Source: Polytrichum commune
Taxonomy: Eukaryota > Streptophyta > Polytrichopsida > Polytrichales > Polytrichaceae
Direction: 5' to 3'
Assembly: GCA_950295325.1 (NCBI GenBank)
Contig: OX485804.1
Span: forward strand, 186,001-250,000
Length of the DNA stretch: 64,000 nucleotides
A model generated the notes under the pieces. The model did no database searches. It was not told the DNA's origin and saw only the letters and a program-made list of their open reading frames with translations. A program made the position numbers and the translations under genes. Below are positions 12,224 through 64,000 of the stretch, one piece after another. The stretch's first letter is position 1. Each line of letters begins with the position of its first letter.

Positions 12224-12264
<41 letters not shown>

Positions 12265-14276: not shown

Positions 14277-14292
14277 GGGCATGGTGGTGAGG

Positions 14293-18700: not shown

Positions 18701-18740
18701 TGTACAATTAATGCATCATTTACAACTTCAAATATGATAT
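15715..18740. other. Gene-free AT-rich stretch
   Basis: No supported gene. Frames of up to 109 codons (for example 16068-16397) have the composition of AT-rich noise and no recognised motif. Confidence 0.5.
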
Positions 18741-18748
18741 TGATAAAC

Positions 18749-19158: not shown

Positions 19159-19166
19159 TGATAAAC

Positions 19167-22100: not shown

Positions 22101-22526
22101 TAATGACTCTGTATCCCAATATTATAGTTTGGCGTACAACACATGGATACCAAGCCAATTTGCACATGATACTTTCAACATAATAGCCATTTATTCAATT
22201 CATAAAAGTAAGTGAAACAAGAAACACCCAAAAATAATTGGAATCCAGAAATCCATCGTCAAAGAGGCAATAACTTGTGGGGCATAGCTTCAGTAGTAGA
22301 TGCTCAAGAAGTCAAATACTTTGATAATCATAACAAAATTTGCGCAATTCAACAACACAAATTATCAATCAACAAGATATGTAAGAATGACATGGTTGAA
22401 AATTCCCTTTTGTTATAGTAATATTTGTAGATTTAAAATTGCATGACCAGTAAATGCATTTATATTCAATCGTGCAAATGTGAATGATTCTTTGACGGTT
22501 CTTTTGGTTTAATTGTCAAATTAAAC
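19167..22526. other. Gene-free AT-rich stretch upstream of the AP2/kelch gene
   Basis: No supported gene. Two related segments near 19740-19810 and 19970-20040 share TCTA(T)AGTATATATAGA, AGTATAAATTGAA and ACATAAGAA(C/T)TA(C/T)AAATATGTCC in order, about 235 bp apart, so they are a diverged duplication. The stretch just before 22527 presumably holds the promoter of the next gene, but no clear TATA box was fixed. Confidence 0.5.
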
Positions 22527-35083: not shown

Positions 35084-36345
35084 AGTGGTTGCGGCCCGCC
35101 GTCGCCGGTGCGGTCCGCGCCTTTCTAAGGTTTCCGAGTCGAAACGGAATCCCTAACACTAACTCAATTCGGTATTTTTAACTACTTTAATGATTTTAGT
35201 TTTTCTCCTCAATTCTAACTAGCCTACCTAACAATCTACCAATAAAGTACTCTACTTATTATGTTTTCCTCGCTCAAACCTATTCCTTAATCTTAAGACA
35301 CGGTTTCTTAAGGTTTTAAGAAAAGGCGGGCCGCGACAATAGGCTTAGAGCATCCAAGGCCACATCATTGCCCCTTGCCAACTAATTAATATTTATAAAA
35401 TAACTATGATGGAGAAAATAGGTCTTACATGCCAACTCGGAGGTGTTTTATTAAAGTAAGCTCCATCCGAGCTTCTTGATGGACTCATCCGATTTTCGTT
35501 ACCGGATGACTTTACTTGAGTGCCACGAATCCCCGGCCATGTGTTGGCAAGTTCTTCGTTAGGCAACTTATGTCACCTTCATTAGTTGATGTCATGTTTT
35601 GAGGTTAATTGTTCTAATGCATGAGAACAAAACTGCGTTGATGGCTATCGTCTTGGGTTTTTTTTTATGTCTAAGAGTTTTTAATGATAATTTCATTTAG
35701 TACTTTTCATGGGTTCAAAAGATCTACCCATAAATGCTTTGCTTAAGTCTTAAATGCCCATGTAGAGCATGTGATAAGTGAATCTATGTTACTATATAGC
35801 AAAAGAAAACATTTAGTTAAACATTTGGAATTGTGCCATGTGGTATTGAGCAAGTTATACATTATAAGCCTCTATTTACCCAATGATATATGAGCATAAT
35901 TTTTGTCATCACCAAATTCTTTAAGAAAACGTCATGCTCTCTTGTAATTCCTTTCGCTCTTGTACCCATAGACCTCAAATGTTGTTTTTACAATATGTCA
36001 TACCTTCTTATCTCTCTACAAATTTTGTAGAAACTTTCATGTGGTTCCAAGTAATTTATGATATAAAAATGGTTGATTTCAACTTTGTTTAGCCAAATCA
36101 TTCAATCAAAGAAGACATCCCCATGTTGGCATGCATGGGTGGTCACGAAAGCCTTTGAAATGAAAGAACCATACCCCAATCCAACCACTATCCAATCACT
36201 TAGCAAGTCTAATAGCACAAGGTTGGTTCATATTACATTTCTTGACCTCAAACTAGCCCAAGACGATGTACTTTAACAATGCAACAAGGTTCACACGTGG
36301 ATGGAGATGCAAACCGTAATATATATATATATGTATATGTATATA
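35084..36345. other. Upstream flank of paralogue B and gene-free DNA
   Basis: The first 250 bp keep the island's composition and may hold the leader or promoter of the minus-strand gene. From about 35340 the DNA becomes AT-rich and I see no gene. A 20-bp sequence at 35519-35538 is the exact reverse complement of 30326-30345. Confidence 0.4.
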
Positions 36346-37740: not shown

Positions 37741-40700
37741 GAGAATGCACCACAACCATTATCTTTGATGGTTTTTCAACACTATCATAAGCAACCTTAT
37801 AGTCCTTAATATAGTTATCAATATAGGTTTTTAACTCCTAACCTATAGGAAGAAAAATTGGCCTACATTGTATATTGTCCATTTAGTGTACAAAGGAAAC
37901 TTTGGATGGTAATTAGTGTTTTTCAAAATATATAAACATCCAATATTATTTCTATTAGTAGTAGCTTGCCATGTACTATTGAGTGCCATCTATGCCTCCC
38001 AAACTCCTTGTGATTCATTTTGTTGTAACACTGGGGGAGGTGACTATCGGAATTTTAGAAAACCAAACGTGAAATAATAAAAAATAGGGTCAAATTAATT
38101 AGTTTAGGGTTAATTTAATAATTTCATTAGATCTACAATAGCATTGGGAATTTCCCCCCTACATGAATATATGTAAAATAGGGGTGGTGGATAATGCCTT
38201 CATTTCTGTAATGAGTAGAAAATAAAATAGGGTCATAGACAAAGGATCCCCTTAAAAATATGTAATTGGATCAGTAGAATAATTATAGGTTTGACTACTT
38301 GGATGAAGAATTGTGTAGTTTTTGTTCAAAGCATGTTAGTATGAAGGGAAATGTCAAGGGATTTTTTTGGGGAAAATAATGTATCGGTGCTCCTCAACGG
38401 CTGTTGGGTTTTGCAACGGTGCTGAACATGTGGGACCTCGCTAGATGCTTAGAACCTGACAGCCTCCGCCGTCACCCTAGATTGCTACCTGTGATCAGTT
38501 TTGGTTTTGTCACAACCTCAGTCCTCGATCGTCAAGCTCATGTTTTTTTAAGCATCTTCTAGGGTTTCTTTCATGCAAATTGATGGTGTGGAGTGGCCAC
38601 TTCCTTTGTAATGTTTTCCGCATGTACTTGGTTTAGAGTTTAGGTTGTAAATGTTTGTTACAAGGTTTGAATGGGATTAGAGTTGAATGTGCTTGTGAAC
38701 ATAATTAAAGTAATTGTTTAAAAAATATGTATTTAAATTTGTTATCTTTGAATGCAATCTTGTATTTTTGGAGTAGGTAGTTGTGCAAAATTTCATGTCT
38801 TGTCAAGACTGATTGTATTTCTTGTTTGTTCTCTTTGTGTTTACAACTTGTCTATTTCAACTTGTATATATTGTTATCTCCATGTTTATTGGTAACCCTT
38901 TAACTAATATCCAAGTGCTATTGGTTGTGTTTTGAATGGTTTAGGATTGGTATTATTAACTGAAACCAAATGAATGACAATTTGAACGATATGGAATGTT
39001 TGTTGCTCACATAGTCGGTTTCGTAATGATATAGTATTTTGTCCACTATTTGGTACTTGTATGATTTATAAAAAATATAATGTGCCAAAAATTAGCCTCT
39101 CGAAAAAATTACAAATAAATATAGGGTGCTAAAAAAAACCTCAAAATAGTTATTTAGCTACAAGTAGGGAGATAAAAAAAATATTGAGATGTGCATAATT
39201 ATCCCCCCATTATCGCACGTGGTTACAAAATGTAAGAGGGTGTGATCGCCCCAAATTGTGACAACAACCACTTTGCCAAGTAACCACATACACATAATGC
39301 CCATTCAAAGTATATTGAAAATGTCACAAGAGCTAAACACACACATACATTCTTAAGCTATTTAACCTTCCCGGATGATGTTATTCTTCCTCCATACACT
39401 GCAATACGAATGATATTCTTTCTCAATGTCATTACAACATTGCTTCACAGAATAACCATGTAGGCCCATAATGCTTATTTCAAATCCTACTCTCATATTC
39501 AAAAACTTGTGTAAGCTGGATATACCCATATGTGGTTAACCTTTTTCATCCTTCCCAACCTGTTACAATTCTCAATGTTGTTGCAAGGGTCTCTTTGCAT
39601 AATAAACACGTGGGCCCATTAGTATTGTATCATCGAGCATGCCCTAGTCAAGTTTATAAGTAGGTCCCTTCTCTTTCAAATTTTACAAGACGATGGTATT
39701 CTTCCTCCACACACCCCAACATGGGCATCTCCCATTTCACTAATCGAGGTTCTTCAATAAGTCCTCTACTTTGTAAGCTTGTGCATAAACAATTTAAGAG
39801 TCTCATATTGTGTCCAACGTAAAAAAAAAAAGGTGTACACCACCCATTTCTAAACAATGTGCCTCCATGTGAAGCAATCCATTCACCCATTCTTCACACC
39901 TTTACCTCTTTACCTTTATCACACCCATACTTTACATTGATTATTTACCTTTATCACATTCCACGTACACTCTAAACTCCGTTATATGAACCCCCTTAAT
40001 GTTTTCTTATATCTTGAATTCCTATAGAATGGATGTTTTAAACCGAAATATCACTCTTTATTTTCATGTTTCTCTCCCATATATCATGGGTTGACTCTAT
40101 GTCTTCCGTAATGTCACATGCTACACTAATCCATTCTTATCATGCACCCATGTTAACACTACATAACTCCTTAATATCATGTGCACTTTGGTTATCACAT
40201 GCATGATATTACAGAGTTTAGAATGTATTTGAGACGAGTGCATAAGTATCTACAAACACCACATGGAAGGAGGCTATTCTGCCCTTGGGACCATAGCATG
40301 GGTAGTTAACATTGAGGACACCCATCCAAGCTTACCCATTCTTAGGTTCCTACAATTAATATGAGATGGGCCGGTATCAAGGAGGTTCCACATGTCCATT
40401 TGTTGGATGGGTACAAGATGGACTGGTCCATGTGACTTGAACTTTAGTATTAAAGTCAAGTTCCATGGAGCAAACCAAATGTCATGGTCCAAAATACTCT
40501 TTTGGCTTCATGGAATGAGCTTCATTTTGGCTTCCCAGACTTGAAAGTCTAATTTCATTTTGCCCCCCACATACGATTTCTTGTGGTAACTTATCCCTGG
40601 CCAGGCCACGTTGGATGGGAAAGGTTACCCTTACTAACTGAAGGAATTCACAAAGTGATCCTGAATACGACTGTAGTAAGTTCCTCCGGCTCCCCGCACA

Positions 40701-41180
40701 CGTACAGACTTAAAGGAGACGACGTTGCCTATTTGTGATGCATGATCCACGTTCTCTGCCACTCTCCCTGCCATTCCTTCCAGCTTGTACGATTACGATG
40801 CTTTGCTTCTCCGTCTTCTTGGACAAAGACCTTGACTTTGCCTCCAACTTACCGTGACTTGTTATCCTCGTGCTTCTTCTTAAGTTATGACTCCTTGGCA
40901 CCTGCAGCGCCCTGTACGAACAATGGATCAGGACAGCACTTGGCAGCAGCAATTCATGTTTCATGGACCTTGTCACACTGAAGCTAACTTGCTCCAATTT
41001 GTAATTCTCATCACCATTCTCTCCAGGTCTTTCTTTGGACTGCCTTGGTCAACCCAAAAAGGGCAAGCAAATGCAAAGGGAAACTTTCCGCCAGTCATTT
41101 CCTTGGGTTGCTGTCTCTTGCTACCTTAAAGTTTACCTCCTTACCTTCCTATTTGCTCACCTTCAGGCATCAGGCTACTT
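37741..41180. other. Gene-free stretch
   Basis: No supported gene. From about 40690 to 41180 composition is more balanced; overlapping frames occur on both strands (40742-40981 plus, 40710-40997 minus) without recognisable domains, so this may be an upstream regulatory region or a decayed sequence rather than a gene. Confidence 0.45.
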
Positions 41181-41188
41181 ATTCATTT

Positions 41189-41202
41189 ATATATATATAA
41201 AT
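41189..41202 (+). promoter_or_regulatory. TATA-like element upstream of the lectin receptor kinase
   Basis: A TATATATATAAA run lies about 440 bp before the ATG at 41645. It would imply a long 5' leader. It is a candidate only; a simple AT repeat is the alternative. Confidence 0.25.
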
Positions 41203-41644
41203 CCTATATACGTGGGGTCAACCCTTAAGATTCCTTTGCGAGAACCTTAAAACAGAACAACATTCATAGGAAACTTTACTAAGTTGGGTCCAAATTCCCT
41301 CTGCAGCACTCTACCCAAGGAAATCACCTTGCGAGGGCTGCTATTTGAATAGGACAGTACGAGAACTACTGGTCATGTAAGTTATATTTTCAGTAAGGAG
41401 TTACTCTGATCGATGTGTAGACTGAGTTTGGCTTACTCACAGCATCTCTTGCTTTTGGGCACACTGTCGAGCTCCAGAACTGCAATGCATTCACACAGAT
41501 GCAGAGCACATGACATTCGATCGGCTCATGCTAGAATACTAAATCCATGCAGATCAAGTGCGTCACTTTCAAGCTGGATTGTGACCTTAATTGAGTTGCA
41601 TGCATGCTTCCGGTGATACGATGCTCTAGTCGTGAGCTGATCCG

Positions 41645-43948
41645 ATGTCGAGCTTGCACCTGTGGGTGGGCTGCGGCGTCCCCATAGCCGCGGCTTGCAA
41701 TTTGTTGGTGCTCATGTACTCTAGCATATGTCACTTAGTTGCAAGTCAGAACACTAATTTCAGTTTTCCATCGTTCACTTCGGCAGACCAATTCATTCTC
41801 CTGGGAAATGTGAACTACTCTGCAGACGACAGCTCTTTCCTCATCGACTCTGCACAATTACTAGGCTCCGGTGGCAAGCTGCTTTACAAGGAGAAGGTGA
41901 GGGTAACAACTCTAAATTCAACTGGCACAACACTCACCACAGCTTCCTTCAACACCTACTTCACGTTCGAGATCACCACTGCAAATCCAGGGCAGCAGGC
42001 GGGAGATGGATTAGCGTTTGCATTCGCGGCCGACAACCATACTCTAGGAGACGAAGGATCCAACATGTGCCTTCTCAAACAAGCGAATGACGGGTTGGCC
42101 ACGAACAAACTCTTGGCCGTGGAGTTTGACACTTTTCGGAATGTCTATCTCAATGATCCGAGTGACAGCCACATCGGGGTGGATGTGAACAGCATGAATT
42201 CCACAGCACTCTACAATCTGTGTGGAGCAGGAGGACCTACGTCGCAGCAAACAAACTGCTCCTATCTTGCTAACGGCGGGCCGTTCACAACTTGGGTTGA
42301 CTACAATGGGACAGGCCAGACACTCGAAGTGCGGTTCGTGAATGGGACCTATTCCAGCGGAAAGAGACCGGCAAACTTCACGATTCAGGTTCAGAATCTT
42401 GACCTAGGCAACGTGTTCAATGCAGACTACATGTACGTAGGATTCAGCGCAAGCACGGGGTCAGTGAGCGAGGTTCACAAAATAAGGTCCTGGAGCTTCG
42501 TGAGTAGTGGCATGCCGGAGGTTAATCTTCTTGGTGCACCGTCTGGAGCCTTGCCTGCACCTGATCATGCAAGCACTAGAGTTAATGTTGCTGCTCTCAT
42601 TTCTGGCGTTGTGGGAGGGTTGGTAGCATTTGGTATGCTCCTTGTGGTCATCTTCCTCCTGTGTAGACGGAGAGAAATTAACTCCAACTTTAAGAAACAG
42701 CAGCAACCTGAAAATAATCCAACAATGAATTATGTCCTCGGACCTCGAAGGTTTACCTACGCGGAACTCAGCGCGGCGACCAAAAACTTCAGCGAAAGTG
42801 AGCGTTTGGGCAGCGGTGGATATGGAGTGGTCTACAAGGGCATTTTGGAGGCCTCGGGCACCTTGGTAGCCGTGAAGCGCATGAGCCGCGAGTCGCAGGA
42901 AGGCGAAGAGGGCTTCTTAGCGGAGGCATGTAGCATCAGCCAGATTCGCCATCGAAATTTGGTGCAACTGCAGGGATGGTGCCACGAGGATGGACGATTT
43001 CTGCTTGTTTATGACTACATGCCCAACGGAAGTCTGGATCGATGGCTCTTCGAAAATACCCGAGAAGAAAGAAAGGAGGATCAGTTTAAGCACCATAATT
43101 TTGTTCCAGATGTGCTTGCCTGGGATTTGCGGTACCAAATTCTAAGTGGAGTGGCGGCAGCGCTGTCCTACTTGCACGAGGAGTGGAAGCAATGCGTGTT
43201 GCACAGGGACATCAAGTCCAGCAATGTGATGCTGGACGCCGATTTCGAGGCACATCTCGGGGACTTTGGGCTGGCTCGGTTGATGGATCACAAGAAAGTA
43301 GAGTTTACTACTTTGATGGCAGGCACACTAGGGTACATGGCACCAGAGTTGGCCATCACCAACAAAGCCACAAAGGAAACGGACGTCTACAGCTTCGGAG
43401 TGCTGGTCATTGAAGTGGTCTGCGGAAAGAGACCACTGGATTTAGTCACTACGGAGCCTGAGGATATGGTGCTCGTGGATACCGTTTGGCGAGCTCATGA
43501 AGCGGGAAATCTGTTGAGCGTCGCAGACGCAAGGCTAGCAATTACTACTAAAACTCCACTCTCAGCTACGGTCTTCGAGGTTGATCAGGAGGACATGTTT
43601 ATGCAATCTCATGTTTCGCAACTGCGTGACAATGCCATAGACTCCACAAACAGTAGCTGCTATCACTCTTTTTCAGAATTTGTACTACCACTAGAACCCG
43701 ATTCTGTTGCTGAAGAGGACGAGAAGATCGTCACATACCTGCTCCAATTAGGGCTGTTGTGTTGCCATCCAATTCCCGAGGCAAGACCATCAATGCGACT
43801 TGTGAATCAGTCGTTTCACACAAGAGATCTTGGCGTGTTGCCGCCACTTCCCTCCTCCCAGCCTCCAGCGAAGCACTACAAGTGGTTCAGTGATACTCCG
43901 CCATCCGTTCCATCATCGGTAGACTTGCTTTCGACGATGTCCGTGTGA
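41645..43948 (+). CDS. L-type lectin receptor-like kinase (LecRK), intronless
   Basis: A 767-residue single-exon receptor kinase of the plasma membrane. A hydrophobic N-terminus (about 1-35) acts as signal peptide. Residues about 38-285 form a legume-type lectin domain (GDGLAFAFA, VEFDTFRN, SHIGVDVNS). A transmembrane segment lies at about 314-338, followed by RRR. The Ser/Thr kinase domain starts near 369 (RRFTYAELSAATKNFS). It has the Gly loop GSGGYGVV, catalytic Lys411, HRDIKSSN with Asp522, DFG Asp540 and GYMAPELA, so all key residues are intact (RD type). Between subdomains X and XI, about residues 632-693, there is an insertion of some 45-50 residues before LLQLGLLCCHP. Members of the family sense extracellular signals in defence and stress; the ligand is unknown. 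No introns, stops or shifts are seen. Composition is GC-richer than the surrounding DNA. Confidence 0.95.
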   Translation: MSSLHLWVGCGVPIAAACNLLVLMYSSICHLVASQNTNFSFPSFTSADQFILLGNVNYSADDSSFLIDSAQLLGSGGKLLYKEKVRVTTLNSTGTTLTTASFNTYFTFEITTANPGQQAGDGLAFAFAADNHTLGDEGSNMCLLKQANDGLATNKLLAVEFDTFRNVYLNDPSDSHIGVDVNSMNSTALYNLCGAGGPTSQQTNCSYLANGGPFTTWVDYNGTGQTLEVRFVNGTYSSGKRPANFTIQVQNLDLGNVFNADYMYVGFSASTGSVSEVHKIRSWSFVSSGMPEVNLLGAPSGALPAPDHASTRVNVAALISGVVGGLVAFGMLLVVIFLLCRRREINSNFKKQQQPENNPTMNYVLGPRRFTYAELSAATKNFSESERLGSGGYGVVYKGILEASGTLVAVKRMSRESQEGEEGFLAEACSISQIRHRNLVQLQGWCHEDGRFLLVYDYMPNGSLDRWLFENTREERKEDQFKHHNFVPDVLAWDLRYQILSGVAAALSYLHEEWKQCVLHRDIKSSNVMLDADFEAHLGDFGLARLMDHKKVEFTTLMAGTLGYMAPELAITNKATKETDVYSFGVLVIEVVCGKRPLDLVTTEPEDMVLVDTVWRAHEAGNLLSVADARLAITTKTPLSATVFEVDQEDMFMQSHVSQLRDNAIDSTNSSCYHSFSEFVLPLEPDSVAEEDEKIVTYLLQLGLLCCHPIPEARPSMRLVNQSFHTRDLGVLPPLPSSQPPAKHYKWFSDTPPSVPSSVDLLSTMSV

Positions 43949-45810
43949 ATACTGTACAAGCGATTGGTTCGAACAAGAACATACATTGGTAGCACCATAT
44001 TCTCGACATAAACTTTTACCCTGAGACATCAACAATTTCGAAATTTTCCCTGATTGGTCTATTTCACCTTCAATCTCATTCGATCCCAGTGAGTGAAGAT
44101 TATAGCTATTACTTTTGATGATTTTGGCCAGAGCTAACGATCAGCAGCAGGTGCTATGGTGGATCGTGGGCCAACAAAGGGATTCAGTTCATTCACCGGG
44201 GAGCTTCAGTCGAGGTACATGGCCGATTGCTCTTCAGGAGCAGATTAACGTAGTGACAGCAGCGATTATCAGCTCGGCGAATCTCGATGCTGGATGATTG
44301 CAATTGTGAGACCTCTCAATCTGCTCAATCTCGAACAGCACCCTCTTGAGGATCATGGTAAGTAATTTAAAGTGCCGCAGAAGGGACACCATCTTCCCTC
44401 TGGTCGTCTTAAGTTAAGGTTTTCATAAGGAATCGTAAAGGTGGACTCCACCTGCAGCAACAAATTATTGCAATAACAGAAGCGATTATCAGTTTGGAGA
44501 AGCTTGATAATGGTCGTTGCAACTGCGAGACCTCTCAAGATGCTTAATCTCGAACAACATCTTCTCGAGGATTAGGGGAGATTGTTGCACAAGGGACATC
44601 ATTTTTGAGTCTATGTCCTCAGTTTCTTGGGGTGCGTTGTTATTACCATGCAAATCCTAGGTAGGGGAGTAGGTAAGGTTTGGAAAGACCTTGGTGGTCG
44701 TCTTGTTTCAAGGTTTTCACTGGGAATCCCAAGTGTTTGAGGTGTTTATACTTCAGAATGAGCATGGAGAAGATGATAAGTAAGGAGATACTGAGATTAG
44801 TAGGTTGCAGGCGACGCTGAGCCCCCCAAAACGGCGGGGTCCCTCTCAACATTTACCTAAGATAATTTTTAGTTGTTTGAGATTAAGAATGGATAATTTG
44901 GGGAACTGCTTGGTTCTCAAACTCAAACTCAGTCTTAGAGTTGCTCTTTGAATCCTTAATCTAGACTAGAGAAATCCAATATCATATTACACAAGTAATA
45001 TTTAACCTCTCAGTCATATCTTGAATTGAATTGAAAATCTTTATATAAATTTATCAAAAGTGGTTCTTCATTTTGAATGTTGTGCAGATGATAGATTTAT
45101 CAAGCTATGCATATAAAGCTTTGGCCGATGGATTGATTGATTATAGGTTGGAATTTTTTTTGTGTTGCAATCGAGGGCAACAGAAATGAGTGGTATGTCA
45201 GTATGATGGTTTGTAGGTGATAGATTTGTGGTGTACAGTTTGGGGTAGGATCATTGATTACTCTGGAAGAGGTTGAAAGCCTCCATTAGAGGTTTGCCCA
45301 CCAAGCCCAACTGTTCAAACTTGAAACTCATTAGGCATGCACAATCGTGTATAGAGGCAGGTATGAAGGTTGATGGACGCTCTGGTGTCTTGTCAAGTGT
45401 CAAAACAATTTGCACTTCACCGAGTTAGTTACTTTGATAAAGGACAATGAATAACAAATCTCCATAGTGTACAACTATCCACTTGAGCATTCATTCAGGC
45501 ACAAAAATTTCAGCTCAGAGTCCTGATCCTAACGTGGTGCCAATAATATTCTTGCCAAGAAGATTAGTATAGGGAGGGGAAACCAAGCCAAGTAGGGATC
45601 TCCCATTCTCCACCACCACACGTGCTAAAGTGGAGATGATTGGGTGAGGTAATAACAATGTCATTATTTTGTGGAGGTAATCTGAACTAAGTCAATCCCA
45701 CCAACTCCTTTTTTGTACAAATTTTGGAATGTCGTAGGGTAGCCATCACCAAGCTTCCAGCCTGGTCACATACATTTGCACCAAGGTTGGACAAGAATAT
45801 AGGTACAATC
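43949..45810. other. 3' flank of the lectin receptor kinase and gene-free DNA
   Basis: No gene beyond short frames. It holds a direct duplication (44258-44735), listed separately. The 3' untranslated region of the kinase gene lies in the first few hundred bases. Confidence 0.4.
44258..44735. repeat. Diverged direct duplication, offset about 220 bp
   Basis: Segments starting at about 44258 and 44477 share GAAGCGATTATCAG-like, GCGAGACCTCTCAA, TTAATCTCGAACA, CTCGAGGAT, an AGGGACA-C/T-CAT block and then GGTCGTCTT and AAGGTTTTCA in order. The copies differ by many substitutions and one insertion. They lie just 3' of the receptor kinase. Confidence 0.75.
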
Positions 45811-55324: not shown

Positions 55325-55857
55325 TGTCGTGTATCACTGCAGCTCGAGTACCAACCACCACTAACAAACAACACTAAAACATAGCAAAGTCACACATAAA
55401 CAACACACCTCGACAGAGAAAGAAGAGAGTCAAACCTTTATAAGAGCTCTAAATCTTTCTTCAAATGCACACAATAAGTCAAGCTATCTCTCACTCCACC
55501 ACGGGAGAATCCAAGAGTATAAGTAGGGGGAGAAGAACTCAAGATTTATTGCAAAAACATGCAATCTTTACCTCACACAAGCTTTCTCTACACACTCACT
55601 CACAAGACTTGATTTGGCAAGAATGCCAAGCCAAGGAGGAGGCTCCTCACTTAGGAGCCTTCCTCTCCACATCTAGATTCATCCATCCAAATCTAGATGG
55701 ATGAAACCCAACGAATAAGGTGCGGCCGTCGACGCCGTATACCGTGACAGCTGTCGTGTAAATAACGATCGTGTGTCACTGCAGCTCGAGTACCAATCAC
55801 CACTAACAAACAACACTAAAACATAGCAAAGTCACACATAAACAATACACCTCGACA
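55325..55857 (-). repeat. Candidate 3' LTR of the gypsy element
   Basis: The segment begins TGTCG and ends CGACA, so it has the TG...CA termini of an LTR. It lies directly after a polypurine tract on the minus strand. An approximately 90-bp block is present at both ends, 55325-55415 and about 55770-55857, in direct orientation and nearly identical. The middle part is unique. The partner LTR would lie beyond the window, so the assignment rests on position and termini. Alternative: an LTR of about 440 bp with a partial tandem copy. Confidence 0.65.
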
Positions 55858-55870
55858 TGCCCCCCTCAGC
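55858..55870 (-). promoter_or_regulatory. Polypurine tract of the gypsy element
   Basis: On the minus strand, GAGGGGGGCA lies immediately before the TGTCGAGG start of the LTR. This is the expected primer site for plus-strand DNA synthesis. Confidence 0.6.
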
Positions 55871-56293
55871 TGACTATGGAGTCCCGCCAAGCAGCTAGGA
55901 CCAATGCCAATCTAAAGGGCATGGATAATAAAATATTGCTCCGCAACTAACTAGTGTGGTAAACGTTATTCCAAGGAACTGTAGGCTGGGTGCAAGGTGA
56001 GCTCCATCCTTAATCGCCTCTGATGTTTGGCCATCAGATTCCAAAGAATTAAATCCACCGCCTCATGTTGATTGCGTCTCTAAGCCATAACTCCTCATTT
56101 TCCATTTGGGCAAGCACAAGATGATGAAAACCACACATGATCATTGAGTACGATTGGTAGAAGCACCAAGTACTGAAGATCCTCGACAGCGATGACAACT
56201 CCACTGTCTAGATGGTAGAGAAGTCAAGGGTGGCTTCAAGCATGCAATGTACCAACCACGTTGACACTGATGACACAAGAGCATAGTAGCCGC
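55871..56293 (-). other. 3' untranslated region between integrase and polypurine tract
   Basis: No frame of interest. It joins the end of the integrase frame to the polypurine tract. Confidence 0.4.
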
Positions 56294-57484
56294 TCATTTC
56301 TTCTCTCCACACACAAAACATGGAAGACCCTCTGGCACGACGGCCAGTTCAGGATGAACTGTACCCTCAATGGGTAGATGACATGGGGCACAGTTTTTGG
56401 AATGCTCGCGACATTCCCTGCCATCCTTGCCTTCCAACAACAACAAACCACTCGGCAACACCTCCTTCACCCGAAGAATAGTGCGCCCCGCCCTGACATC
56501 CAATGTCGTAGGCGCCTCACGTTGAAGATAGACATAATCCCCCTGCCGGAATCTCCGCAACTGAGGTCGGTAAGCACCACTGCGAATGCGTGCATAACGC
56601 AATGTGTCACGGTGCTGAGCAATGGACAAATTCTCCATGGCCATAGGCATGGCTATCTGGAAGAATTGAGCCCGTTCTTGCAAGCACTCTGCCCAAATAT
56701 TTGGGTCATCCAAGTCCACAATAGGAGCTAGCTTTTCCCGAATAGATCTTGGGAGTATGGGCTCACGTCCATACAACAACTGATACAGGTTGTAGGACGC
56801 CAAATAGGCATGCCTACTAAATCGATAGCCCATAGCAATCCAAGGCAACATAAGGTTCCAATCCCGGTGGCTCCCTCGAAGTAATCCATACTTCCTCAAG
56901 CCACGCTTGGTTGTCTGAACAACCTGTTCAGCCAAGCCATCCGCCTCTGGATGATCCCGAGAGGTGGTGCGGTGATCTATGAGCGCCTTAGTGCACAACT
57001 CCTCGAAAGCACCGAGGAACTCCCTCCCTTCGTCCGTCAATACCTCAGCCGGTGCTCCAAAACGTGCCAACACACGATCCAAAAAGGCAGCCGCGGCCAA
57101 CTCCGCAGAGTTTTGGGGTAAAGCAACAAGCTCAATCCACTTGCTAAAATGCTCCACCATCACCAACACGTACTTTGCTCCACGTGGCGTGACAACCAGC
57201 GGTCCCGCAAAATCTAACGACCAACGGTAGTCCAATCTCATGATAGGTAAGGGTTGTAACTGAGGTGACAAGGTGTTAAAGCTAGACCTGACCCGGTCAC
57301 AAACTTTACATCTCCCGACATAAGCAGCCACCTGCTGATATATGTCAATCCACCAATATTGGCCACGCAACATCGAATGTGTCCTGTGTATGCCAAAATG
57401 GCCAAGTTCCTCGTGCACTTGTCGCACCAAGGAGGCCCTCTGATCCGGCCTAGGGACAATACGTCTTGTCCCATCCGACCACAA
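56294..57484 (-). CDS. Gypsy integrase
   Basis: Inserts the element's cDNA into the host chromosome. A 396-codon open frame starts at 57484 in this copy, but is really the 3' part of a longer polyprotein. The zinc-binding head is VHEELGHFGIHRT followed by RCKVC (His24/29/33 and Cys59/62). The catalytic core has Asp91 (SLDFAGPL), Asp151 (VLTDEGREF) and Glu186 (ADGLAEQVVQ), with 34 residues between the last two. A C-terminal GPY-like or chromodomain motif is not obvious; the tail (about 300-396) resembles the DNA-binding end of gypsy integrases. All catalytic residues are present, making this the best-preserved part of the element. Confidence 0.9.
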   Translation of the reverse strand: MWSDGTRRIVPRPDQRASLVRQVHEELGHFGIHRTHSMLRGQYWWIDIYQQVAAYVGRCKVCDRVRSSFNTLSPQLQPLPIMRLDYRWSLDFAGPLVVTPRGAKYVLVMVEHFSKWIELVALPQNSAELAAAAFLDRVLARFGAPAEVLTDEGREFLGAFEELCTKALIDHRTTSRDHPEADGLAEQVVQTTKRGLRKYGLLRGSHRDWNLMLPWIAMGYRFSRHAYLASYNLYQLLYGREPILPRSIREKLAPIVDLDDPNIWAECLQERAQFFQIAMPMAMENLSIAQHRDTLRYARIRSGAYRPQLRRFRQGDYVYLQREAPTTLDVRAGRTILRVKEVLPSGLLLLEGKDGRECREHSKNCAPCHLPIEGTVHPELAVVPEGLPCFVCGEKK

Positions 57485-58036
57485 TCGAAATAATAAACCG
57501 TTCTCCCAACGGAACCTTATTATTCAATGTCCAATCCTATCCCTTTCCATTGCCGAAATAGACGAAGGAAAGGTACCCTGTTGAAGCTTATGCAATACGG
57601 GAAGGTCCTCCCATATATCTGCAATAGCTTGAGGTTGATCAGTCTCATCATCCAAGCCCTGTATCGGAACCTCAACAGATGCACCAGAAAATAAATTGAG
57701 GTAAGCAGTCGCGTGCCAACCTGGAACCGCCTCTCGATCACAATCTCCATGCCACCTAGCCCCGGTCAAAGCCTCATCCGAAGGACTTGGATTGCGTGAG
57801 AGTCCATCAGCATCCAGGTTGGTAATCCTAGCACGGTGCACCACCTCAAAGTCATACTCCTGGAGCAACAAAACCCACCTGGCAAGCTTGCCAGTAAGCT
57901 TATCCGACTCCATGAGCCACCGTAATGGCTGATGGTCAGTCACCAACGTAAAGCGCTAACCATAAAGGTACGGCCGAAAATGGGCAATAGCCCATACCGC
58001 CGCCAATGCTTCTCCCTCGTAGGATGAATAATTAGT
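57485..58036 (-). pseudogene. Gypsy RNase H, C-terminal part plus spacer, broken
   Basis: Degrades the RNA strand in RNA-DNA hybrids during reverse transcription. The minus strand reads NYSSYEGEALAAVWAI, then TLVTDHQPLRWLM and DADGLSRNPSP, the usual C-terminal half of gypsy RNase H. An in-frame TAG at 57956-57958 replaces a glutamine codon (CAG). A frame change separates this part from the integrase at about 57485-57530. The N-terminal half continues at 59574 across the nested insertion. Confidence 0.85.
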
Positions 58037-59573
58037 CACTCAGTAGGATTTTTGTGTACCACGTGCGGCGGAGGGGTATTTGTTTAGGGGTTATTTACCT
58101 CCAAGGCACGAATTAAAAGCTCCCTATAATTACATAATATTTTAAATGGCCTATTTTATTGTACCCTACCATTTCTTATAATGCCTATGTCATTGAAATT
58201 TTTGTATTCTATATTATTTTTAATTAAAAAAACTGAATTTAAGAATGTATGCAATGCAAAAGTGATGGGAAAAGTATAGCAACAAAAAAATATAAAAATT
58301 ACGTACCATTGCAAAAACCAAGTACAAAAACTTAAAGTGAAAATACAAAAAGAAGACTTAGGATGGAACACAACATGATTGAGTGTGTGTTTACAAACAC
58401 AACAAGATTGTGTGTGTGTTCACAAACACAACACCCACTCCATAAAAATTCTTTATTCAAAATCACTTTACATGCTAGTGAAGACCAAAACCATATAGTG
58501 TGAAACACTTTAAGCTTGGTCATGAATCTTATATAGTTCCTTCTGTCACAAACTTGGACAGTTGCTCTGAATCATTCCTATCAAGACTGTACACCTCATT
58601 TGTAAAATTGTAGCTCATGGTTACCGTAGATATAATGCAATCTACATCAATCCATTTGCTATCCGTGTGATCATACTTAAATTTGTTACGGCCTGGATAT
58701 TTTCTATAATATTGCAACATTACTTCGATGTGGGGATTATTAGGATTTTTCCTCCCTGATTCCTCCGTTCGAGCAAGGAGGTCAACCGCTTGCCTAAATA
58801 CTCCAAATTGTTTCCCATTACGCCGCCGCATAGCCTGCACCCTACCCACCCACCATGAACTGGAATCTACTCCGTTCAATATGTTAGTAGCATTTCCAGC
58901 TTTAACATCAGTCATTGAACGTCCCATTTTTCGTATTCTCTGCCTGCGCTATGCTTAGTTCTTGCAAAGTTCGGGAGCAGAAACTGACTAACAATCAGAA
59001 TAACCACGACACTCAATGATCACTAATCTCTGTGGATCATTCCAGACCTGCTCTTCAAGGTTTCCGCATCAGATCACGGAGCATGGCTAAAAAACTCTAC
59101 ACAAGATTGGAGAAGAGGATGACGACAAGCAATCCTAAACCCTAAACACAACGGTGAGGCTCAAATGTTGTGCACAAGCGGGCGCCCTACAATCGGGTTG
59201 AAGAGTTTCAAAAGAGAAGGGGAGAAAAACCACCAAGAGAAGTCGGGCATAGAGTTAGGCTTCCAATTTCATCCATTTTTGGGTGAATGATGAGTAATTT
59301 TTCATCCATCCCTCGTGAGGCATGCGTACGAAATTGATTCTACTAAACATACATCCTAATATCCTTATTTTCAGCCCCTATATTATTTTTACTAAAAGAT
59401 AATGGCCCATATTTTATACCTATCTATTTTACTTGTAATGGGCTTATGTACTTTTAATGGACCCTTCATTATTTGGAATTATTTTATAATTTTTATGTCA
59501 AATGATTTTAATCCTCCCTATATTATGCCGCACGTCGTTTTTAAAATGGACTAAATGACCTCCCTGTGCCGTG
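58037..59573. mobile_element. Nested insertion (about 1.54 kb) inside the gypsy RNase H
   Basis: The RNase H reading stops at VVAYASRSNN on the right (about 59573) and resumes at NYSSYEGE on the left (about 58036), so 1.5 kb has been inserted. The right end is CACGGCACAGGGAGGTCATT (minus strand). The left end has ACGTGCGGCGGAGGGG. They share CGGC..AGGG and TTTAG, which suggests weak inverted termini like those of the small hAT-like MITEs nearby. The target duplication is not clear (TTAGTCACT versus TTATTACTT). Confidence 0.75.
58529..58927 (-). CDS. Unrecognised frame in the nested insertion
   Basis: A 132-codon open frame begins MGRSMTDVKAG and has a clear globular look, with SSWWVGRVQAMRRR, FRQAVDLLART, HIEVMLQYYRKYPG and KFKYDHTDSKWIDVDCI. 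I do not know the family. It lies on the same strand as the host element but in DNA unrelated to it. It may be the C-terminal exon of a transposase-associated protein or of a captured host gene. It is short for an intact product, so is probably a fragment or last exon. Confidence 0.45.
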   Translation of the reverse strand: MGRSMTDVKAGNATNILNGVDSSSWWVGRVQAMRRRNGKQFGVFRQAVDLLARTEESGRKNPNNPHIEVMLQYYRKYPGRNKFKYDHTDSKWIDVDCIISTVTMSYNFTNEVYSLDRNDSEQLSKFVTEGTI

Positions 59574-60744
59574 TTATTACTTCGCGAAGCGTAAGCAACA
59601 ACATACTCCCGGCCAACATCATCCTTCTGAGTGAGAATTGCTCCTAAACCCAATGAACTCCAATCCGTATGCAACTGGAAGGATTTGGAGACATCCGGAC
59701 GTCAAAGCACTGGAGCCGCACCCAGTTTCTGCTTCAATGTCTCAAATGCCTGCTGTTGCTCACGACCCCAAGTCCAAGGTTGGTCCTTGCTCATGAGAAT
59801 GGTGAGAGGCTTGGCGATCAAGCTAAAATTCTTGACGAATCGACGATAGTAATTCGCCAAGCCCAAGAAAGCACGAAGTCTCGGCACATCAACCGGTGCC
59901 GGGATCTTCTGCAAAACATCCACCTTAGCTTGCTGCACCCCAAGACCTCCTAGAATAATCATATGACCAAAATATGCCAGCCGGTCATGGAAAACTTGCA
60001 CTTGCCGTGGTACAAGCGCAATTCCCACCGCTGCAAGTGTTCAAAAACGGCTTGCAGATGCCTCACATGCTCCTGTGGTGTCCTGATGAAGATGATCACA
60101 TCGTCTATGTAACACCGAGCAAAGGGCAAGCCAGAGTGGACCTGGTCCATCACCCTCTGAAACTGAACATGTGTATTCTTCAGGCCAAATGGAAGAAACT
60201 TCCAATGGTAAAGTTGATCCTTCCCATTTTGATCAACTCCCCAAAATGCGGTCTTTACCCGGTCTCCCAGAAGTAATGGGAGCTGGTGATAGCCGGATCT
60301 CAAGTCCAATGTGCTAAAGACTCGAGCAAATCCGAGGGCATCAAACAACTCCTCCGAGATTGGCATGGGATACCGATCCGACTTGGTCTTCCGGTCAACT
60401 GGACGGTAATCCCCGCACATCCGCTTCTCCGTCCAATTGCCAAAGATATACTTCTTCGATGACCTAACCGTAGTACAAGCATACTCCCCGTTGGACAGTT
60501 TGATTAGCCTTACTGCCAAAAGCTCTCGGCAACGAGTCTGAACGCCAATCCGTTCGGAAACACTGAGCCTATAAGGTCTCCGAAAAATAGGATGGTCTTC
60601 CTCTAACTGAATGTGGATGGGTTTTCCTTTATAACTTTTAAGATCTTGCAGGCTAAAAGAAAAACACCTACGGTACGAGCGAATAAATGCTCGTACTTTC
60701 CGTGCCTCAGCACCAGTGAGAAGAGGGCTAATTCCAATGGCCAA
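59574..60744 (-). pseudogene. Gypsy reverse transcriptase and RNase H N-terminal part, frameshifted
   Basis: Copies the element RNA into DNA. The frame from 60744 carries the RT fingers and palm: KRMCGDYRPV, then STLDLRSGYHQLPL with catalytic Asp147, FLPFGLKN, and CYIDDVIIF with the YIDD box (Asp214-Asp215, near 60100-60111). At about 59960-60030 the reading changes frame and continues as AYFGHMI, then LRAFLGLANYYRRFVKNF and WTWGREQQQAFETLK to TGA at 59702-59704. The RNase H start (LHTDWSSLGLGAIL, then GREYVVAYASRS) follows down to 59574. The palm residues remain, but the shift and stop prevent a full product. Confidence 0.9.
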
Positions 60745-61087
60745 TCATCAAATTTTGTGGTCTCCGTCTCCACTAAAAGGGAGCCACCTGGTGCTGGCAC
60801 GGACTCTAACTGCTACAAAGAGGAAGGGACATTAACCATGCCCCCAACCTTCGTGCTAGCAATAGAGTCCATCCCCTCTTCATCACCACTAATATGTGAT
60901 GATGAAGCCACCACTGGAGGTGAAAAAACCAAAGCAGTATAAACCCGTTGAGCTCGGAGCTCCTCCATCACTTGCTGCGCAAATCGAAATATTCGTTCGG
61001 CTTTCCAACCATGACCTCAATTTCCTCCTCCATGAATGTGGACCAGTGTGCCCCCTGACCAGAATCCTCTGCCCCCAGAGACAATAA
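60745..61087 (-). other. Linker between methyltransferase and RT
   Basis: Frames change in this stretch and no domain is recognised. It would be the polyprotein spacer in an intact copy. Confidence 0.4.
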
Positions 61088-62040
61088 CTAGTCACCATGA
61101 TGTCGTTGCAATGCAAGGCATAAACTAACCGTCCACACCATGGTATGAAGATCTATGGCTTGGCCCAACATGAAGCGTCGTTGGCCCTCAGAAAGGCCAG
61201 GAGCTGTAGTGGTACCAGTGCGAAATCCCATGGCACGCTCCCGTTTGTCAGCCAAGGGTTCGGTGTGGATTTTGGTGGTAGCATCCCACACCATACCCGG
61301 CCCCCGATCGCGGAAGGCGAATGACTGTGGAAATGTCATAAAGGTGGGAAACGCCCACCGTGGTGCCCCCAATTTGTTGACCAATGCCAACATGGATAAA
61401 TCATCTCGAACAAAAGGCGGAGGTACTGCAGAAAATGTTGCAGCCAAAATAGATAATGGTGCGAGGTTGGTCCAAATCCACCGAGGCCGGTGGGCATAAG
61501 AACCAATGCTCGCGGCATCCACAAAAATGGGATCTTCAAGGTGTTGACGAACATAATGATCGCCTTCCAACACCTTGTCCCGAGAGTCTCCCAACAAATG
61601 TACATTCTCGAAGATATACCCTGGAAGGGAAGGTTGGTGGGTAAACCACCACTGCATAAGCCGGATGAGGTCCCAAAAAAGGCTAGACCTGGGATCCTCT
61701 AAACCTCGGCCTGCTCCAGCACGTGAGTGACCTTGGCATGGCCATCCCGCAATCACAATATCCACCAGACCCAAGTGTCGTAAGTCGGCCTCACTAATGA
61801 GTGTGACATCACGAGGAAGACGTAACATCATTGATGAGTGTGACACCCACGAATGACAGCCGAGTGTAACTGCTAGGGTACAATACCATCAACTAGTGAA
61901 GATGGTAGCGAGCCACACGGGTGGACACTGGAGAGTTGTCCACATAGACATACCGTCTGACCGTGAGGCCAGCCTCCAATACGGCTGCTAAGCCCGTGCC
62001 AATGCCCCCAAACACTTCCACCAAAGTGATCCCCGCGTCT
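61088..62040 (-). pseudogene. Cytosine-5 DNA methyltransferase domain of the gypsy element
   Basis: Would add methyl groups to cytosine C5 using S-adenosylmethionine. Motif I (FGGIGTGLAAVLEAGL) and the motif II-like YVYVDN end the upstream frame near 62012-61930. Motif IV (VIAGWPCQGHSRAG) has the catalytic Cys (residue 37 of the 61846-61088 frame). Motif VI is FENV (79-82), motif VIII-like RPRWIWTN (120-127), and the late AMGFRTGTT and LGQAIDLHTMVW (about 205-238) close the fold. Motif order is canonical and the RPRWxWTN box is nearest to DNMT3/DRM-like rather than bacterial enzymes, which is a tentative reading. A TAG at 61893-61895 (from CAG) and a frameshift near 61810-61890 separate motif I from the rest, so this copy cannot make the full domain. 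Confidence 0.88.
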
Positions 62041-63302
62041 GACGGACGCCACATAATGGGGTGTGCCAACGCCGATGGGCTATCAAATATGAGCGGTGTC
62101 GTAGAGGCGAAAGAGAGGACAATGCCCTCACATCGCCGGACTAGATTGGCGGAATCACGCCAGGGAGAAAGGGGATCCTTGGGATCGCGCCCCATTGCAT
62201 TCCTAGGTGCCATATCCCGTTGATCGTCTGTACTCCCCATGAATGCCAATGATTCCTCCAACAATGCGGAACCATAAGGCAATGTGTCCACAATAGCAAC
62301 ACATCCAAAAACCATGGATAATGGTGCTATGGTCGCGGACGCCGCGAAAGCCATATGAATAAGTTCCCTGCGGCCATCCCCAGCCGACCAACCTGGTCGG
62401 ATCCACGCCTCTTCAATCCAGTTGTCCAAACCAAAGCCAAGAGGATAAAGTGCTTGCTGACCTACTAAAATGTCATAGTCAATCGCATCCGTCATCGCAC
62501 ACCTAAGAAGAAGAGGTATTGGTGGATCTCCATGTTTTACTTGGAAGCTAAGCTGTAATGGCTCCCGAGTATAACCCATGGCCCGCTCCACGTGACCAAC
62601 GGATGTGATAATGGTGAATGGACAGGGAGCCAAGTCCTCGGCCGCCAATCCCAACTCATGGGCAAGCTTCTTGCCGATCATAATGGGTTGTGTCCTTGAA
62701 TCCATCATCACACAACGGGGTGCAACCCGAGTGGCATTGCCCCCAGTCCGACTGACCATCAAAATGTCGGTATCATTCACCATACGCACAACACTGTGTC
62801 GAATGGCGCGGCCCTCGCGAACAAATCTAGCAGCTACATCAGACAGATAAGCTGCTCCCGCGGATTGTGGTGAATCATAAGACGTGGTCGGCCCCCTGTG
62901 ATCTGAGGTGTATGCGTCAAAAGACGCAATGGTCTCTGCAGCAAGCCTTGCTCGCCGTTTGGCCACTTCATCGGGGTCTTCAGAAGTAGGGATGTCCGTG
63001 GTGGCTTGGGCCACGGTCAAAGAAGGTGAGGATGCCGTCCCTTCCAAAATCCTACCCGCTAAGTGAAAAACCTTAGCAGGTTGGAATTCTGGCGATGACC
63101 ACTCCATCGCCGTGAACAAAGGGGTGTGCAACAATTTGGATGCCAAAGTGTGCACCATGCCAATCGCCGGATTTGAAGCCTCCAAACTCGAATGACGACC
63201 ACTTACAGATTGGACCGCATCCGCCAATCCAAAATATAATGGCAAACGGGCCTGGCCAATCTGATCCACTGGACCATTGCCCCGAGCTCGTAAGCTCTCC
63301 AC
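62041..63302 (-). pseudogene. Gypsy protease-like domain and linker, in frame with methyltransferase motif I
   Basis: One continuous 469-codon frame (63302-61893) has a gag-proximal linker (about 1-150), an aspartic-protease-like region (about 165-320) and the start of the methyltransferase (about 425 onward). The protease motif is CVMMDSRTQP (Asp201), where DS(G/T)A is usual, then IGKKLAHELGL and YDILVGQQALYPLGF. The Gly of the active triad is Arg203 here, so catalysis is probably lost or the copy is mutated. The frame shows directly that protease and methyltransferase belong to one polyprotein. Confidence 0.8.
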
Positions 63303-64000
63303 AGACTCCTATGTGGTTGAGGGCGTGGCTCGTGACACGGATTGAGCCCGTGTCACCGCTGCGGAACTCACCATTTCTCCCGAGGCTCCGAACATACAAT
63401 AATCCGGAGTGGAAGAACTAGCCTTAGTGGCGGACAAAAACGGTGAGTCCAAGATTTGGCCGGATGACGCCAAACTTTTGAACCTCTTCTCCAATGCTCC
63501 AATCTTTCCCTCCAACGCCTTCTTCCGATCGGAAGAAGGACGTTTCTCTGGATGGAAAGCGAAGCAGTTCTCCACCGTGTGATTGTTCCGCCCACAATGG
63601 GAACACGTCAACTGCTTGGGTAAATGCTTACCCGTCCCCTTCCTCGAATACTTCGAGGGAACAAATGGTTTCCGCTTCAGATTACCTACGGTCTGGGTTG
63701 TCATTGCTTCGAAGGACAATCCTTCTTAGCGTGGCCCGCCTGCCGACAAGACCAACAATGCAACGTCTTGTCCGCCTCCACCTCTGCCAATTCTGCAGTC
63801 GCGACCGGCACCTTCCGGATTTGCTAGACTCCACTAGCAAGGACACCAAATCAGTGGCATTGTGATGATACAATGCACGATCACACTGCTCCACAATGGC
63901 GAATGCCTCTACAAGTGTCGTCCGACCATCATAATCCATGATGATCCTGGGTAGCGCCAAGTCAAGGAGGCGTTTGTCAATCTTGGACAAAAACACCTTC
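63303..64000 (-). pseudogene. Gypsy gag, C-terminal part with two CCHC knuckles, frameshifted, cut by window edge
   Basis: Gag forms the particle and binds the element RNA. One knuckle, CSHCGRNNHTVENC, lies in the frame 63719-63309. A second, CWSCRQAGHAKKDC, lies near 63725-63770 in another frame, so a frameshift separates it from the sequence before. Upstream, from 63996, helical gag sequence is seen (LLDLALPRIIMDYDGRTTLV), and the N-terminus lies beyond the window. Both knuckles fit C-x2-C-x4-H-x4-C. Confidence 0.8.

What the first reader, a model, noticed from the sequence alone, without database searches (positions are those of the whole stretch)
61088..63302. Ty3/gypsy retrotransposon carrying its own cytosine DNA methyltransferase between protease and RT
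The sequence shows C5-methyltransferase motifs I, II-like, IV (PCQ), VI (ENV), VIII-like and a C-terminal block in canonical order. Motif I is in the same open frame as the protease-like region, and the RT follows 3'. DNMT-bearing retroelements have been reported in Klebsormidium and Symbiodinium, so this would extend the system, probably to a land plant. Such an enzyme could let the element methylate its own copies or interfere with host silencing. That role is inference, and this copy is broken.
Basis: partly seen in the sequence, partly recalled or inferred. Interest (0 to 1): 0.9.

Follow-up and report, generated by a model that had tools for sequence, protein, structure and literature searches.

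The report
Bryophyte retrotransposon with DNA methyltransferase
The stretch is a broken copy of a mobile element, present in many copies in a moss-like plant, that carries its own enzyme for chemically tagging DNA, so the parasite may set the silencing marks on its own new copies.

Summary
Confirmed and extended. The window holds a decayed Ty3/gypsy copy (from about 55.3 kb to beyond the window end, minus strand). Between protease and RT it carries a C5-cytosine DNA methyltransferase (Pfam DNA_methylase E=1.1e-11), closest by sequence and fold to DNMT3A/B. It is not a one-off: at least 130 copies lie on seven large contigs. The catalytic Cys is kept in 32 of 33 distinct copies read, and the domain is under purifying selection.

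The integrase ends in a PHD finger. Reverse transcription looks self-primed. Repeats are split (A-ORF-B-A-B) yet flanked by 4-bp duplications, implying a DDE integrase acting on circular or concatemeric DNA. Relatives occur in Marchantia, Klebsormidium and metagenomes. DNMT-gypsy elements are known from Klebsormidium (PMC5890265), so this is a new variant of a known kind. The function, methylating its own cDNA, is inferred.

The parts
63309..63999 (-). gag C-terminal part and CCHC zinc knuckle (CSHCGRNNHTVENC at 63564-63605), in two broken frames; gag start lies beyond the window
   Evidence: ORFs, position, tblastn with ORF1 of L035; no Pfam match in this copy
62418..62708 (-). retropepsin-like protease; active-site DSG reads DSR in this copy
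   Evidence: Asp_protease_2 / gag-asp_proteas in relative L030 (below curated cut-off)
61893..63308 (-). open frame with protease-like region and DNMT motif I (61968-62024)
61088..61888 (-). open frame with DNMT motifs IV (61715-61747), VI (61601-61618), VIII-like (61463-61501), X (61133-61165); 17 residues missing relative to the first aligned relative, after motif VIII
   Evidence: Pfam DNA_methylase E=1.1e-11; positions; gap in alignment
60807..60815 (-). UAG CAG UUA: stop codon in type I readthrough context CARYYA between DNMT ORF and RT frame
   Evidence: 20 of 20 fetched copies, this one included, keep TAG CAR YYA
59959..60744 (-). reverse transcriptase (YIDD at 60088-60123)
   Evidence: Pfam RVT_1 E=1.6e-22
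59568..60040 (-). RT end and first half of RNase H
58034..59567 (.). foreign insertion of about 1.5 kb that splits RNase H (not part of the element)
   Evidence: gap between blastn blocks against L035 and tblastn blocks
57524..57955 (-). second half of RNase H
   Evidence: Pfam RT_RNaseH E=4.9e-08
56294..57523 (-). integrase: H2C2 zinc domain and DDE core
   Evidence: Pfam Integrase_H2C2 E=2.9e-15, rve E=8e-14
56144..56330 (-). remains of the C-terminal PHD finger, broken by a stop
   Evidence: translation, tblastn; PHD in relatives L035 E=1.8e-10 and L030 E=2e-10
55858..55870 (-). polypurine tract GCTGAGGGGGGCA directly before repeat B
   Evidence: compare
55750..55857 (-). repeat B, first copy; the B|A junction carries the palindrome GACAGCTGTC
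55416..55749 (-). repeat A, 3' copy (5' copy lies beyond the window end; 338 bp aligned, 94.97% identical)
55325..55415 (-). repeat B, second copy, 3' end of the element (ACACGACA)

Best explanation
A decayed member of a high-copy Ty3/gypsy family, with many young copies, in a bryophyte. SHOWN from sequence: 5'A - gag-PR-DNMT3-like - UAG(CARYYA) - RT-RNaseH-INT-PHD - polypurine tract - B - A - B, with TG..CA ends and 4-bp duplications. INFERRED: most ribosomes stop at the UAG and make Gag-PR-DNMT; a few read through to make RT-IN-PHD. The methyltransferase is then in large excess over RT and, being fused to Gag, is carried in the particle. The RNA's own 5' segment folds onto the site just after A and primes reverse transcription. 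The DNA ends join, and the integrase cuts at the GACAGCTGTC palindrome inside the joined repeat, which gives the split-repeat provirus. The DNMT methylates the new double-stranded DNA before or at integration, and the PHD finger guides the integrase to chromatin with a given H3 tail. The likely benefit to the element is that the new copy arrives already bearing host-like methylation: tolerated, shielded from sensing of unmethylated DNA, and inherited quietly.
Against: No methylation, RNA or protein data were available. The one gypsy-DNMT3 enzyme tested in PMC5890265 (Klebsormidium, yeast) showed no activity, called inconclusive. CpG loss in this window copy was weak and mixed. Motif IV is PCQ, not the PCN usual in DNMT3 (recalled; PCN in the DNMT3A chain). 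The DNMT model is of modest quality (mean pLDDT 60.1), and two DNMT3 rows lie at or below the best M.HhaI row. Within subfamily A, DNMT dN/dS is 0.20-0.30, weaker constraint than between subfamilies, where pS is near saturation. 9 of 20 fetched copies, chosen mainly for long frames, have ORF1 broken before the UAG.
Confidence: 0.62

Rival explanations
1. The DNMT acts against the host rather than on the element's own DNA: the abundant Gag-PR-DNMT competes with or misdirects host DNMT3/MET1, so silencing is diluted and the element escapes.
For: The ORF layout predicts much more DNMT than RT. In Physcomitrium a DNMT3 does de novo CHH methylation (passages in PMC9516144 and PMC10952607), so a DNMT3-like protein could interfere.
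Against: Catalytic residues are conserved; a pure decoy would not need them. The domain is fused to Gag and, by readthrough, to RT and INT, which ties it to the particle.
Confidence: 0.15
2. The methyltransferase protects cDNA from a host defence that attacks unmethylated DNA or deaminates cytosine (restriction-modification logic), with no role in silencing.
For: Proposed for SymbioDIRS in PMC5890265. A Gag-fused, particle-borne enzyme would act at the right time.
Against: No such nuclease or deaminase is known to me in bryophytes (recalled, not searched); retrotransposons without a DNMT also move in such genomes (same paper).
Confidence: 0.2
3. The domain is an RNA-binding or structural Gag extension that no longer methylates DNA.
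For: It lies in the Gag ORF; the Klebsormidium DNMT showed no activity in yeast.
Against: AdoMet and catalytic motifs are kept in many distant relatives and in 31-33 of 33 copies.
Confidence: 0.08
4. A one-off: a host DNMT gene captured by or lying beside this single insertion, or a chance match.
For: None beyond the broken state of this copy.
Against: At least 130 places; relatives at 48-81% identity among the 8 hits that cover 90% or more of the query; ORF1 open over 1361-1386 codons up to the UAG in 11 of 20 fetched copies.
Confidence: 0.01

Closest known systems
KnitGypsy-Dnmt3 of Klebsormidium nitens (de Mendoza et al. 2018, PMC5890265; abstract and sections 6, 9, 10, 11 read, other passages searched)
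   Same: Gypsy domain set, DNMT3-type domain, DIRS-like repeat arrangement, purifying selection. A Klebsormidium protein (P0075, KFL_005250035) is a sequence relative (34% identity over 74% of the query) and falls on the PR|RT side of the DNMT tree.
   Different: There the DNMT is described within the Pol ORF; here it is in the gag-PR ORF before a readthrough-type stop. 'PHD' and 'readthrough' occur 0 times in that paper's main text; self-priming was not looked up there. Host is a bryophyte. P0075 lacks motif IV, reads EMV for ENV and is a long branch; whether it is one of the paper's copies was not checked.
SymbioDIRS-Dnmt3 and SymbioLINE-Dnmt of Symbiodinium (same paper)
   Same: Retrotransposon-encoded DNMT at high copy number; A-ORF-B-A-B repeats in the DIRS form.
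   Different: Tyrosine recombinase or LINE endonuclease there; DDE integrase with 4-bp duplications here.
Chromoviruses and the Tf1/sushi/Tcn1 group (PMC6317226, passages)
   Same: Chromatin-reader domain at the integrase C-terminus; self-priming in Tf1/sushi/Tcn1; 4- or 5-bp duplications.
   Different: PHD finger instead of chromodomain; DNMT; split repeats.
Type I stop-codon readthrough of tobamoviruses (PMC5382211, passages)
   Same: UAG followed by CARYYA between an upstream product and the polymerase.
   Different: Here in an LTR retrotransposon and not assayed.

Membership tests
Ty3/gypsy LTR retrotransposon | PR-RT-RNaseH-INT order with Ty3-like RT | tested here: met
   best PDB match of the Pol stretch is Ty3 Gag-Pol, 4.7e-100
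Ty3/gypsy LTR retrotransposon | DDE integrase, TG..CA ends and short target duplication | tested here: met
   rve domain; ends TGTC...GACA; 4-bp duplication exact in 7 of 8 copies, 3 of 4 bases in the eighth (L042)
Ty3/gypsy LTR retrotransposon | identical LTRs at both ends | tested here: not met
   5' A only, 3' B-A-B in 8 of 8 copies with both ends read: permuted repeats
C5-cytosine methyltransferase | Pfam DNA_methylase and motifs I, IV, VI, VIII, X in canonical order | tested here: met
DNMT3 subfamily | closer to DNMT3 than to other C5-MTases of known structure | tested here: met
   PDB sequence searches; Foldseek and VIA-align
DNMT3 subfamily | PCN at motif IV (recalled as usual for DNMT3) | tested here: not met
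   PCQ in this element
DNMT3 subfamily | groups with host DNMT3 in a tree with DNMT1, CMT, DRM | not tested
   no host DNMT set was fetched; the genome search unreachable
KnitGypsy-Dnmt3 | DNMT in the Pol polyprotein ORF | tested here: not met
   DNMT in ORF1 with gag and PR, before an in-frame UAG
KnitGypsy-Dnmt3 | DIRS-like A-ORF-B-A-B repeats | tested here: met
DIRS retrotransposon | tyrosine recombinase, no target duplication (the latter recalled) | tested here: not met
   DDE integrase and 4-bp duplications
Chromovirus | chromodomain at integrase C-terminus | tested here: not met
   PHD finger there, no chromodomain family listed at E<=0.05 for two representatives
Type I readthrough | UAG CARYYA with open frame on both sides | tested here: met
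   motif in 20 of 20 copies; fully open on both sides in 7 of 20; also L082
Type I readthrough | measured readthrough | not testable with these tools
   needs a reporter or ribosome profiling
Tf1-type self-priming | complementarity between the RNA 5' region and the primer site | tested here: met
   that the segment lies near the RNA 5' end is assumed
Tf1-type self-priming | RNA 5' end at the primer and cleavage by RNase H | not testable with these tools
   needs 5' RACE

The most novel reading that the evidence does not exclude
A retrotransposon lineage, old in green plants, that installs its own epigenetic state. A DNMT3-type writer is made at Gag level because RT needs stop-codon readthrough, and it methylates the circular cDNA. 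A DDE integrase with a histone-reading PHD finger then inserts that circle through an internal palindrome. Writer and reader have been co-inherited since before the split of the two architectures (DNMT before RT, or between RNase H and INT).
Probability: 0.3. Interest if true: 0.9.

Novelty: new variant of a known kind. Interest (0 to 1): 0.74.

Why it matters
It takes DNMT-bearing retrotransposons from an alga and dinoflagellates into bryophytes, including sequenced Marchantia, where the proteins sit in databases as hypothetical. Marchantia is a tractable laboratory plant, so the question of why a transposon would carry a silencing enzyme becomes testable. The pairing with a PHD finger in both architectures points to chromatin choice as part of the life cycle. 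The stop-codon layout predicts the enzyme at Gag stoichiometry, which ribosome profiling can check. The split repeats with 4-bp duplications suggest a DDE integrase that uses circular or concatemeric DNA. PMC5890265 reports the Klebsormidium acquisition as independent of the dinoflagellate one, which nothing here disputes; within green plants, though, the Klebsormidium, Marchantia and present elements look like one old lineage rather than a Klebsormidium oddity.

Tried and rejected
CpG loss as a trace of past methylation: the window copy against L035 gave 15 lost and 12 gained CpG in one stretch and 22 lost and 6 gained in another; against L038, 15 and 15; a control pair of other copies gave 6 and 1. 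Inconclusive, not used.

Viral contigs: 29 loci encode relatives of the DNMT profile at 26-58% identity (best segment); I took them for ordinary phage methylases and did not annotate them. Four of five genome-contig loci are Streptomyces records at 32-55% identity; only L082 is the element. VIA-align rows list DNMT3, M.HhaI, M.HaeIII, a prophage methylase and DNMT2; a class not listed there is not excluded.

Conventional LTRs were expected and rejected: self-comparison shows A at the 5' end and B-A-B at the 3' end. A tRNA primer was considered and dropped by eye: subfamily B has no TGG at the primer site, while both subfamilies match their own A repeat. No tRNA set was compared.

Host name: not settled. 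Plastid accD says bryophyte; seven large contigs made me think of Polytrichaceae (n=7, recalled), which no call confirmed (a literature search with Polytrichum found nothing). A matK search never got an answer.

The census of RT relatives without DNMT, the search for host DNMT genes and matK could not be done: the genome search answered twice and was unreachable. No search for host DNMT genes was sent.

The literature library is open-access PMC only. Searches for earlier reports. No listing or passage that I saw reports such an element in a bryophyte, but most subscription papers and all preprints are outside the library, and one search listed 20 of 37 papers, 12 of 17.

In the DNMT tree the joining of P0113 with the Klebsormidium protein is flagged by the program as a possible long-branch artefact; I lean only on the split of that side from the other clade. 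That run also held duplicate rows P0090, P0091 and P0092 (the same copies as the two moss rows).

Full report
OBSERVATION. The window is C2:186001-250000 of an assembly of 407.8 Mb in 64 contigs. Pfam gives DNA_methylase (PF00145) at E=1.1e-11 for the frame 61091-61888, RVT_1 at 1.6e-22, RT_RNaseH at 4.9e-8, Integrase_H2C2 at 2.9e-15 and rve at 8e-14 for the frames that follow; the frames with gag, protease and motif I matched no family. tblastn with ORF1 and Pol of relative L035 places gag, PR, DNMT, RT, RH, INT and PHD colinearly. The copy is dead: several frame breaks, DSG to DSR in the protease, a 1.5-kb insertion in RNase H, a stop in the PHD finger. Its two A repeats differ at 17 of 338 positions.

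NOT A ONE-OFF. A protein search of the own genome with the 266-residue frame gave 259 matches at E<=0.001, with 144 of 556 candidate stretches scored. The full and first-half matches among the listed rows fall in 130 distinct places on C1-C7, a lower bound. Two subfamilies stand out: A (mostly 74-90% identical to the window frame) and B (62-63%). I fetched 19 further loci of about 10 kb, chosen mainly for long open frames, plus the window's own, so intactness among these 20 is a biased sample. In 11 of 20, ORF1 is open over 1361-1386 codons up to the UAG; in 7 of 20 it is followed in the same frame by 1045-1048 open codons. For 8 of the 20 I also fetched the 3' end. There the two A repeats differ by 0 or 1 substitution in 7 of 8, and by 6 of 333 in L025.

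ANATOMY. Element strand: repeat A (333 bp in A, about 440 in most of B) beginning TGTCACG; primer site; leader; ORF1 gag-CCHC-protease-DNMT; in-frame UAG; RT-RNaseH-INT-PHD; polypurine tract (GAGGGGGGGCA or GTGGGGGCA); B (about 106 bp); A; B ending ACACGACA. Pfam on two representatives: DNA_methylase 9.7e-11 (A) and 8.8e-12 (B); PHD 1.8e-10 and 2e-10; protease only in B (0.0012) and zf-CCHC only in A (0.0034), both below their curated cut-offs. Four-base target duplications are exact in L025, L029, L030, L031, L032, L040 and L035, and match at 3 of 4 bases in L042. In the window copy the flanks share CATC if two bases were lost at the 3' end (my reading).

STOP CODON. Between DNMT and RT there is a UAG. 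All 20 fetched copies read TAG CAR YYA: CAA TTA or CAG TTA in A, CAA TCA in B. An independent 9,285-bp contig, L082, filed under a cyanobacterial metagenome bin, holds a third element with TAG CAA TCA between a frame ending in DNMT and a 1047-aa Pol frame. UAG followed by CARYYA is the type I readthrough signal of plant RNA viruses (PMC5382211, passages). The coding tail just before the stop is among the most diverged parts (pN 0.44 between subfamilies), so the signal is not simply carried along by general conservation. Relatives such as P0093 and P0097 end at a similar place, whereas P0113 runs on without a stop, so the layout belongs to part of the family. Readthrough itself was not measured.

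SELF-PRIMING AND SPLIT REPEATS. Directly after A lies a segment complementary to a stretch inside A: 13-15 bases in A and 12 in B, in 8 of 8 copies (the longest match in 200 shuffles was 10-11 for seven copies, and 14 against 15 observed for L025). L082 has a single complementarity of 11 or more bases (partners more than 60 bases apart) in its 1,968-bp repeat/leader stretch, 13 bases at the corresponding place. Across the three families 39 of 39 cells pair and 3 of 13 pairs change on both sides; shuffles reached the observed values in 4, 10, 4, 97 and 4 of 500 for the five measures, and sliding the partner by 1-3 columns leaves 28-46% paired (three sequences only, each picked for its own complementarity, which favours pairing). 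Because B follows the polypurine tract and A abuts the primer site, ordinary reverse transcription should give B-A-body-B-A. The genomic form A-body-B-A-B is what joining those ends and cutting at the B|A palindrome GACAGCTGTC would give. That palindrome occurs once, at the internal junction, in 8 of 8 copies, while the termini end GACA and begin TGTC without the GC between. I infer integration from circular or concatemeric DNA. The Klebsormidium element is reported to have the DIRS repeat structure too (PMC5890265, Fig. 4 legend).

RELATIVES. Search 1: 87 proteins, mostly metagenomic; one bears a eukaryote's name, Klebsormidium nitens. One search (only the 7,992 best candidates scored): 33 long proteins, 7 of them Marchantia polymorpha 'hypothetical proteins' (for instance Mp_4g09160, 49% identity). 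In P0110 (Marchantia), P0111, P0113 and the elements of this genome DNMT precedes RT; in P0116, P0117, P0119, P0120, P0121, P0124 and P0125 it lies between RT and INT; P0123 (no RT found) has DNMT before INT and P0118 (no INT found) has DNMT after RT. A PHD finger follows INT in 9 of 10 proteins with an INT match; the tenth, P0111, ends inside INT. The DNMT tree separates the two positions with 100/99 support. The RT+INT tree (11 rows, 4 of 8 inner branches unresolved) supports P0117+P0121, P0120+P0125, and P0111, P0113 with both subfamilies. Both trees are rooted at the midpoint for drawing. Co-inheritance therefore looks old, though horizontal transfer is not excluded. The PDB chains closest to the PHD finger include CHD4, PHF12, KMT2D, KAT6A, DPF3 and ATXR5; which H3 state it reads is open.

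HOST. Contig C8 carries rbcL, trnR-CCG, accD and, by eye, the start of atpB. In one search (best 120 of 2,887 shown; names cut short by the tool) accD is 93% identical to a cluster named Sphagn..., 92% to Flatbe... and Pallavicinia lyellii, 90-91% to Aneura pinguis, 89% to Anthoceros agrestis and to several mosses, 88% to Takakia, and 86% to the nearest ferns. So the host is a bryophyte; moss is likely but unproved.

MECHANISM AND LIMITS. I hold the element's identity, copy number, conserved catalytic domain, stop context and repeat structure as shown. Readthrough, self-priming, circle integration, DNA methylation and PHD targeting are inferred, in that order of confidence. PMC5890265 showed CG methylation in yeast for SymbioDIRS enzymes but not, inconclusively, for the Klebsormidium gypsy enzyme (section read). 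In the passages I saw, a 2025 paper (PMC12344493) cites that report for DNMT3 inside retrotransposons of streptophytes and dinoflagellates, naming LTR Copia and DIRS.

VERDICT. Real, with the design of a working element in intact copies, and part of a lineage spread over green plants. A new variant of a known kind, with three features that I saw in no report among the searches listed: the readthrough layout, the PHD finger beside a DNMT, and the bryophyte host.

Noticed in passing
window 58034-59567: A foreign insertion of about 1.5 kb splits RNase H; it holds an open frame of 139 codons (58529-58948, minus) with no Pfam match, and self-comparison found no long inverted ends.
   Followed up: partly
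L082 (CADCWO010000201.1), P0006, P0116: Elements of this retrotransposon family are filed under bacterial metagenome bins (a cyanobacterium, Obscuribacterales, Minisyncoccia); a trap for claims of bacterial DNMT3-like enzymes.
   Followed up: partly
L082 1-127 and 9159-9285: The two contig ends overlap by 127 identical bases, so the element closes to a circle with a single repeat in that assembly: assembly collapse or real circles.
   Followed up: no
P0064 (281 aa, metagenome): DNMT motifs I and IV run straight into integrase: an internal-deletion derivative or misassembly.
   Followed up: no
L035 against L038, and L036 against L034: dS varies along the element (gag 0.36-0.38, PR and DNMT 0.10-0.13), which suggests recombination between subfamily A lineages.
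   Followed up: no
L032 461-726; L029-L033 and L042 about 1511-1969: Subfamily B has a duplicated stretch of about 138 bp inside an A repeat of L032 and an imperfect tandem of about 141 bp in the leader.
   Followed up: no
G000:C3:14137891-14138196 (L022): A 102-residue rbcL piece in an open frame of 181 codons on a chromosome-sized contig, probably organelle DNA in the nucleus.
   Followed up: no
window 56001-64000 against 8001-24000: The element is GC-rich (about 0.50) beside DNA of 0.32-0.39 GC; other GC-rich blocks at 1-6000, 32001-36000 and 40001-44000 gave no tblastn match to this element.
   Followed up: partly
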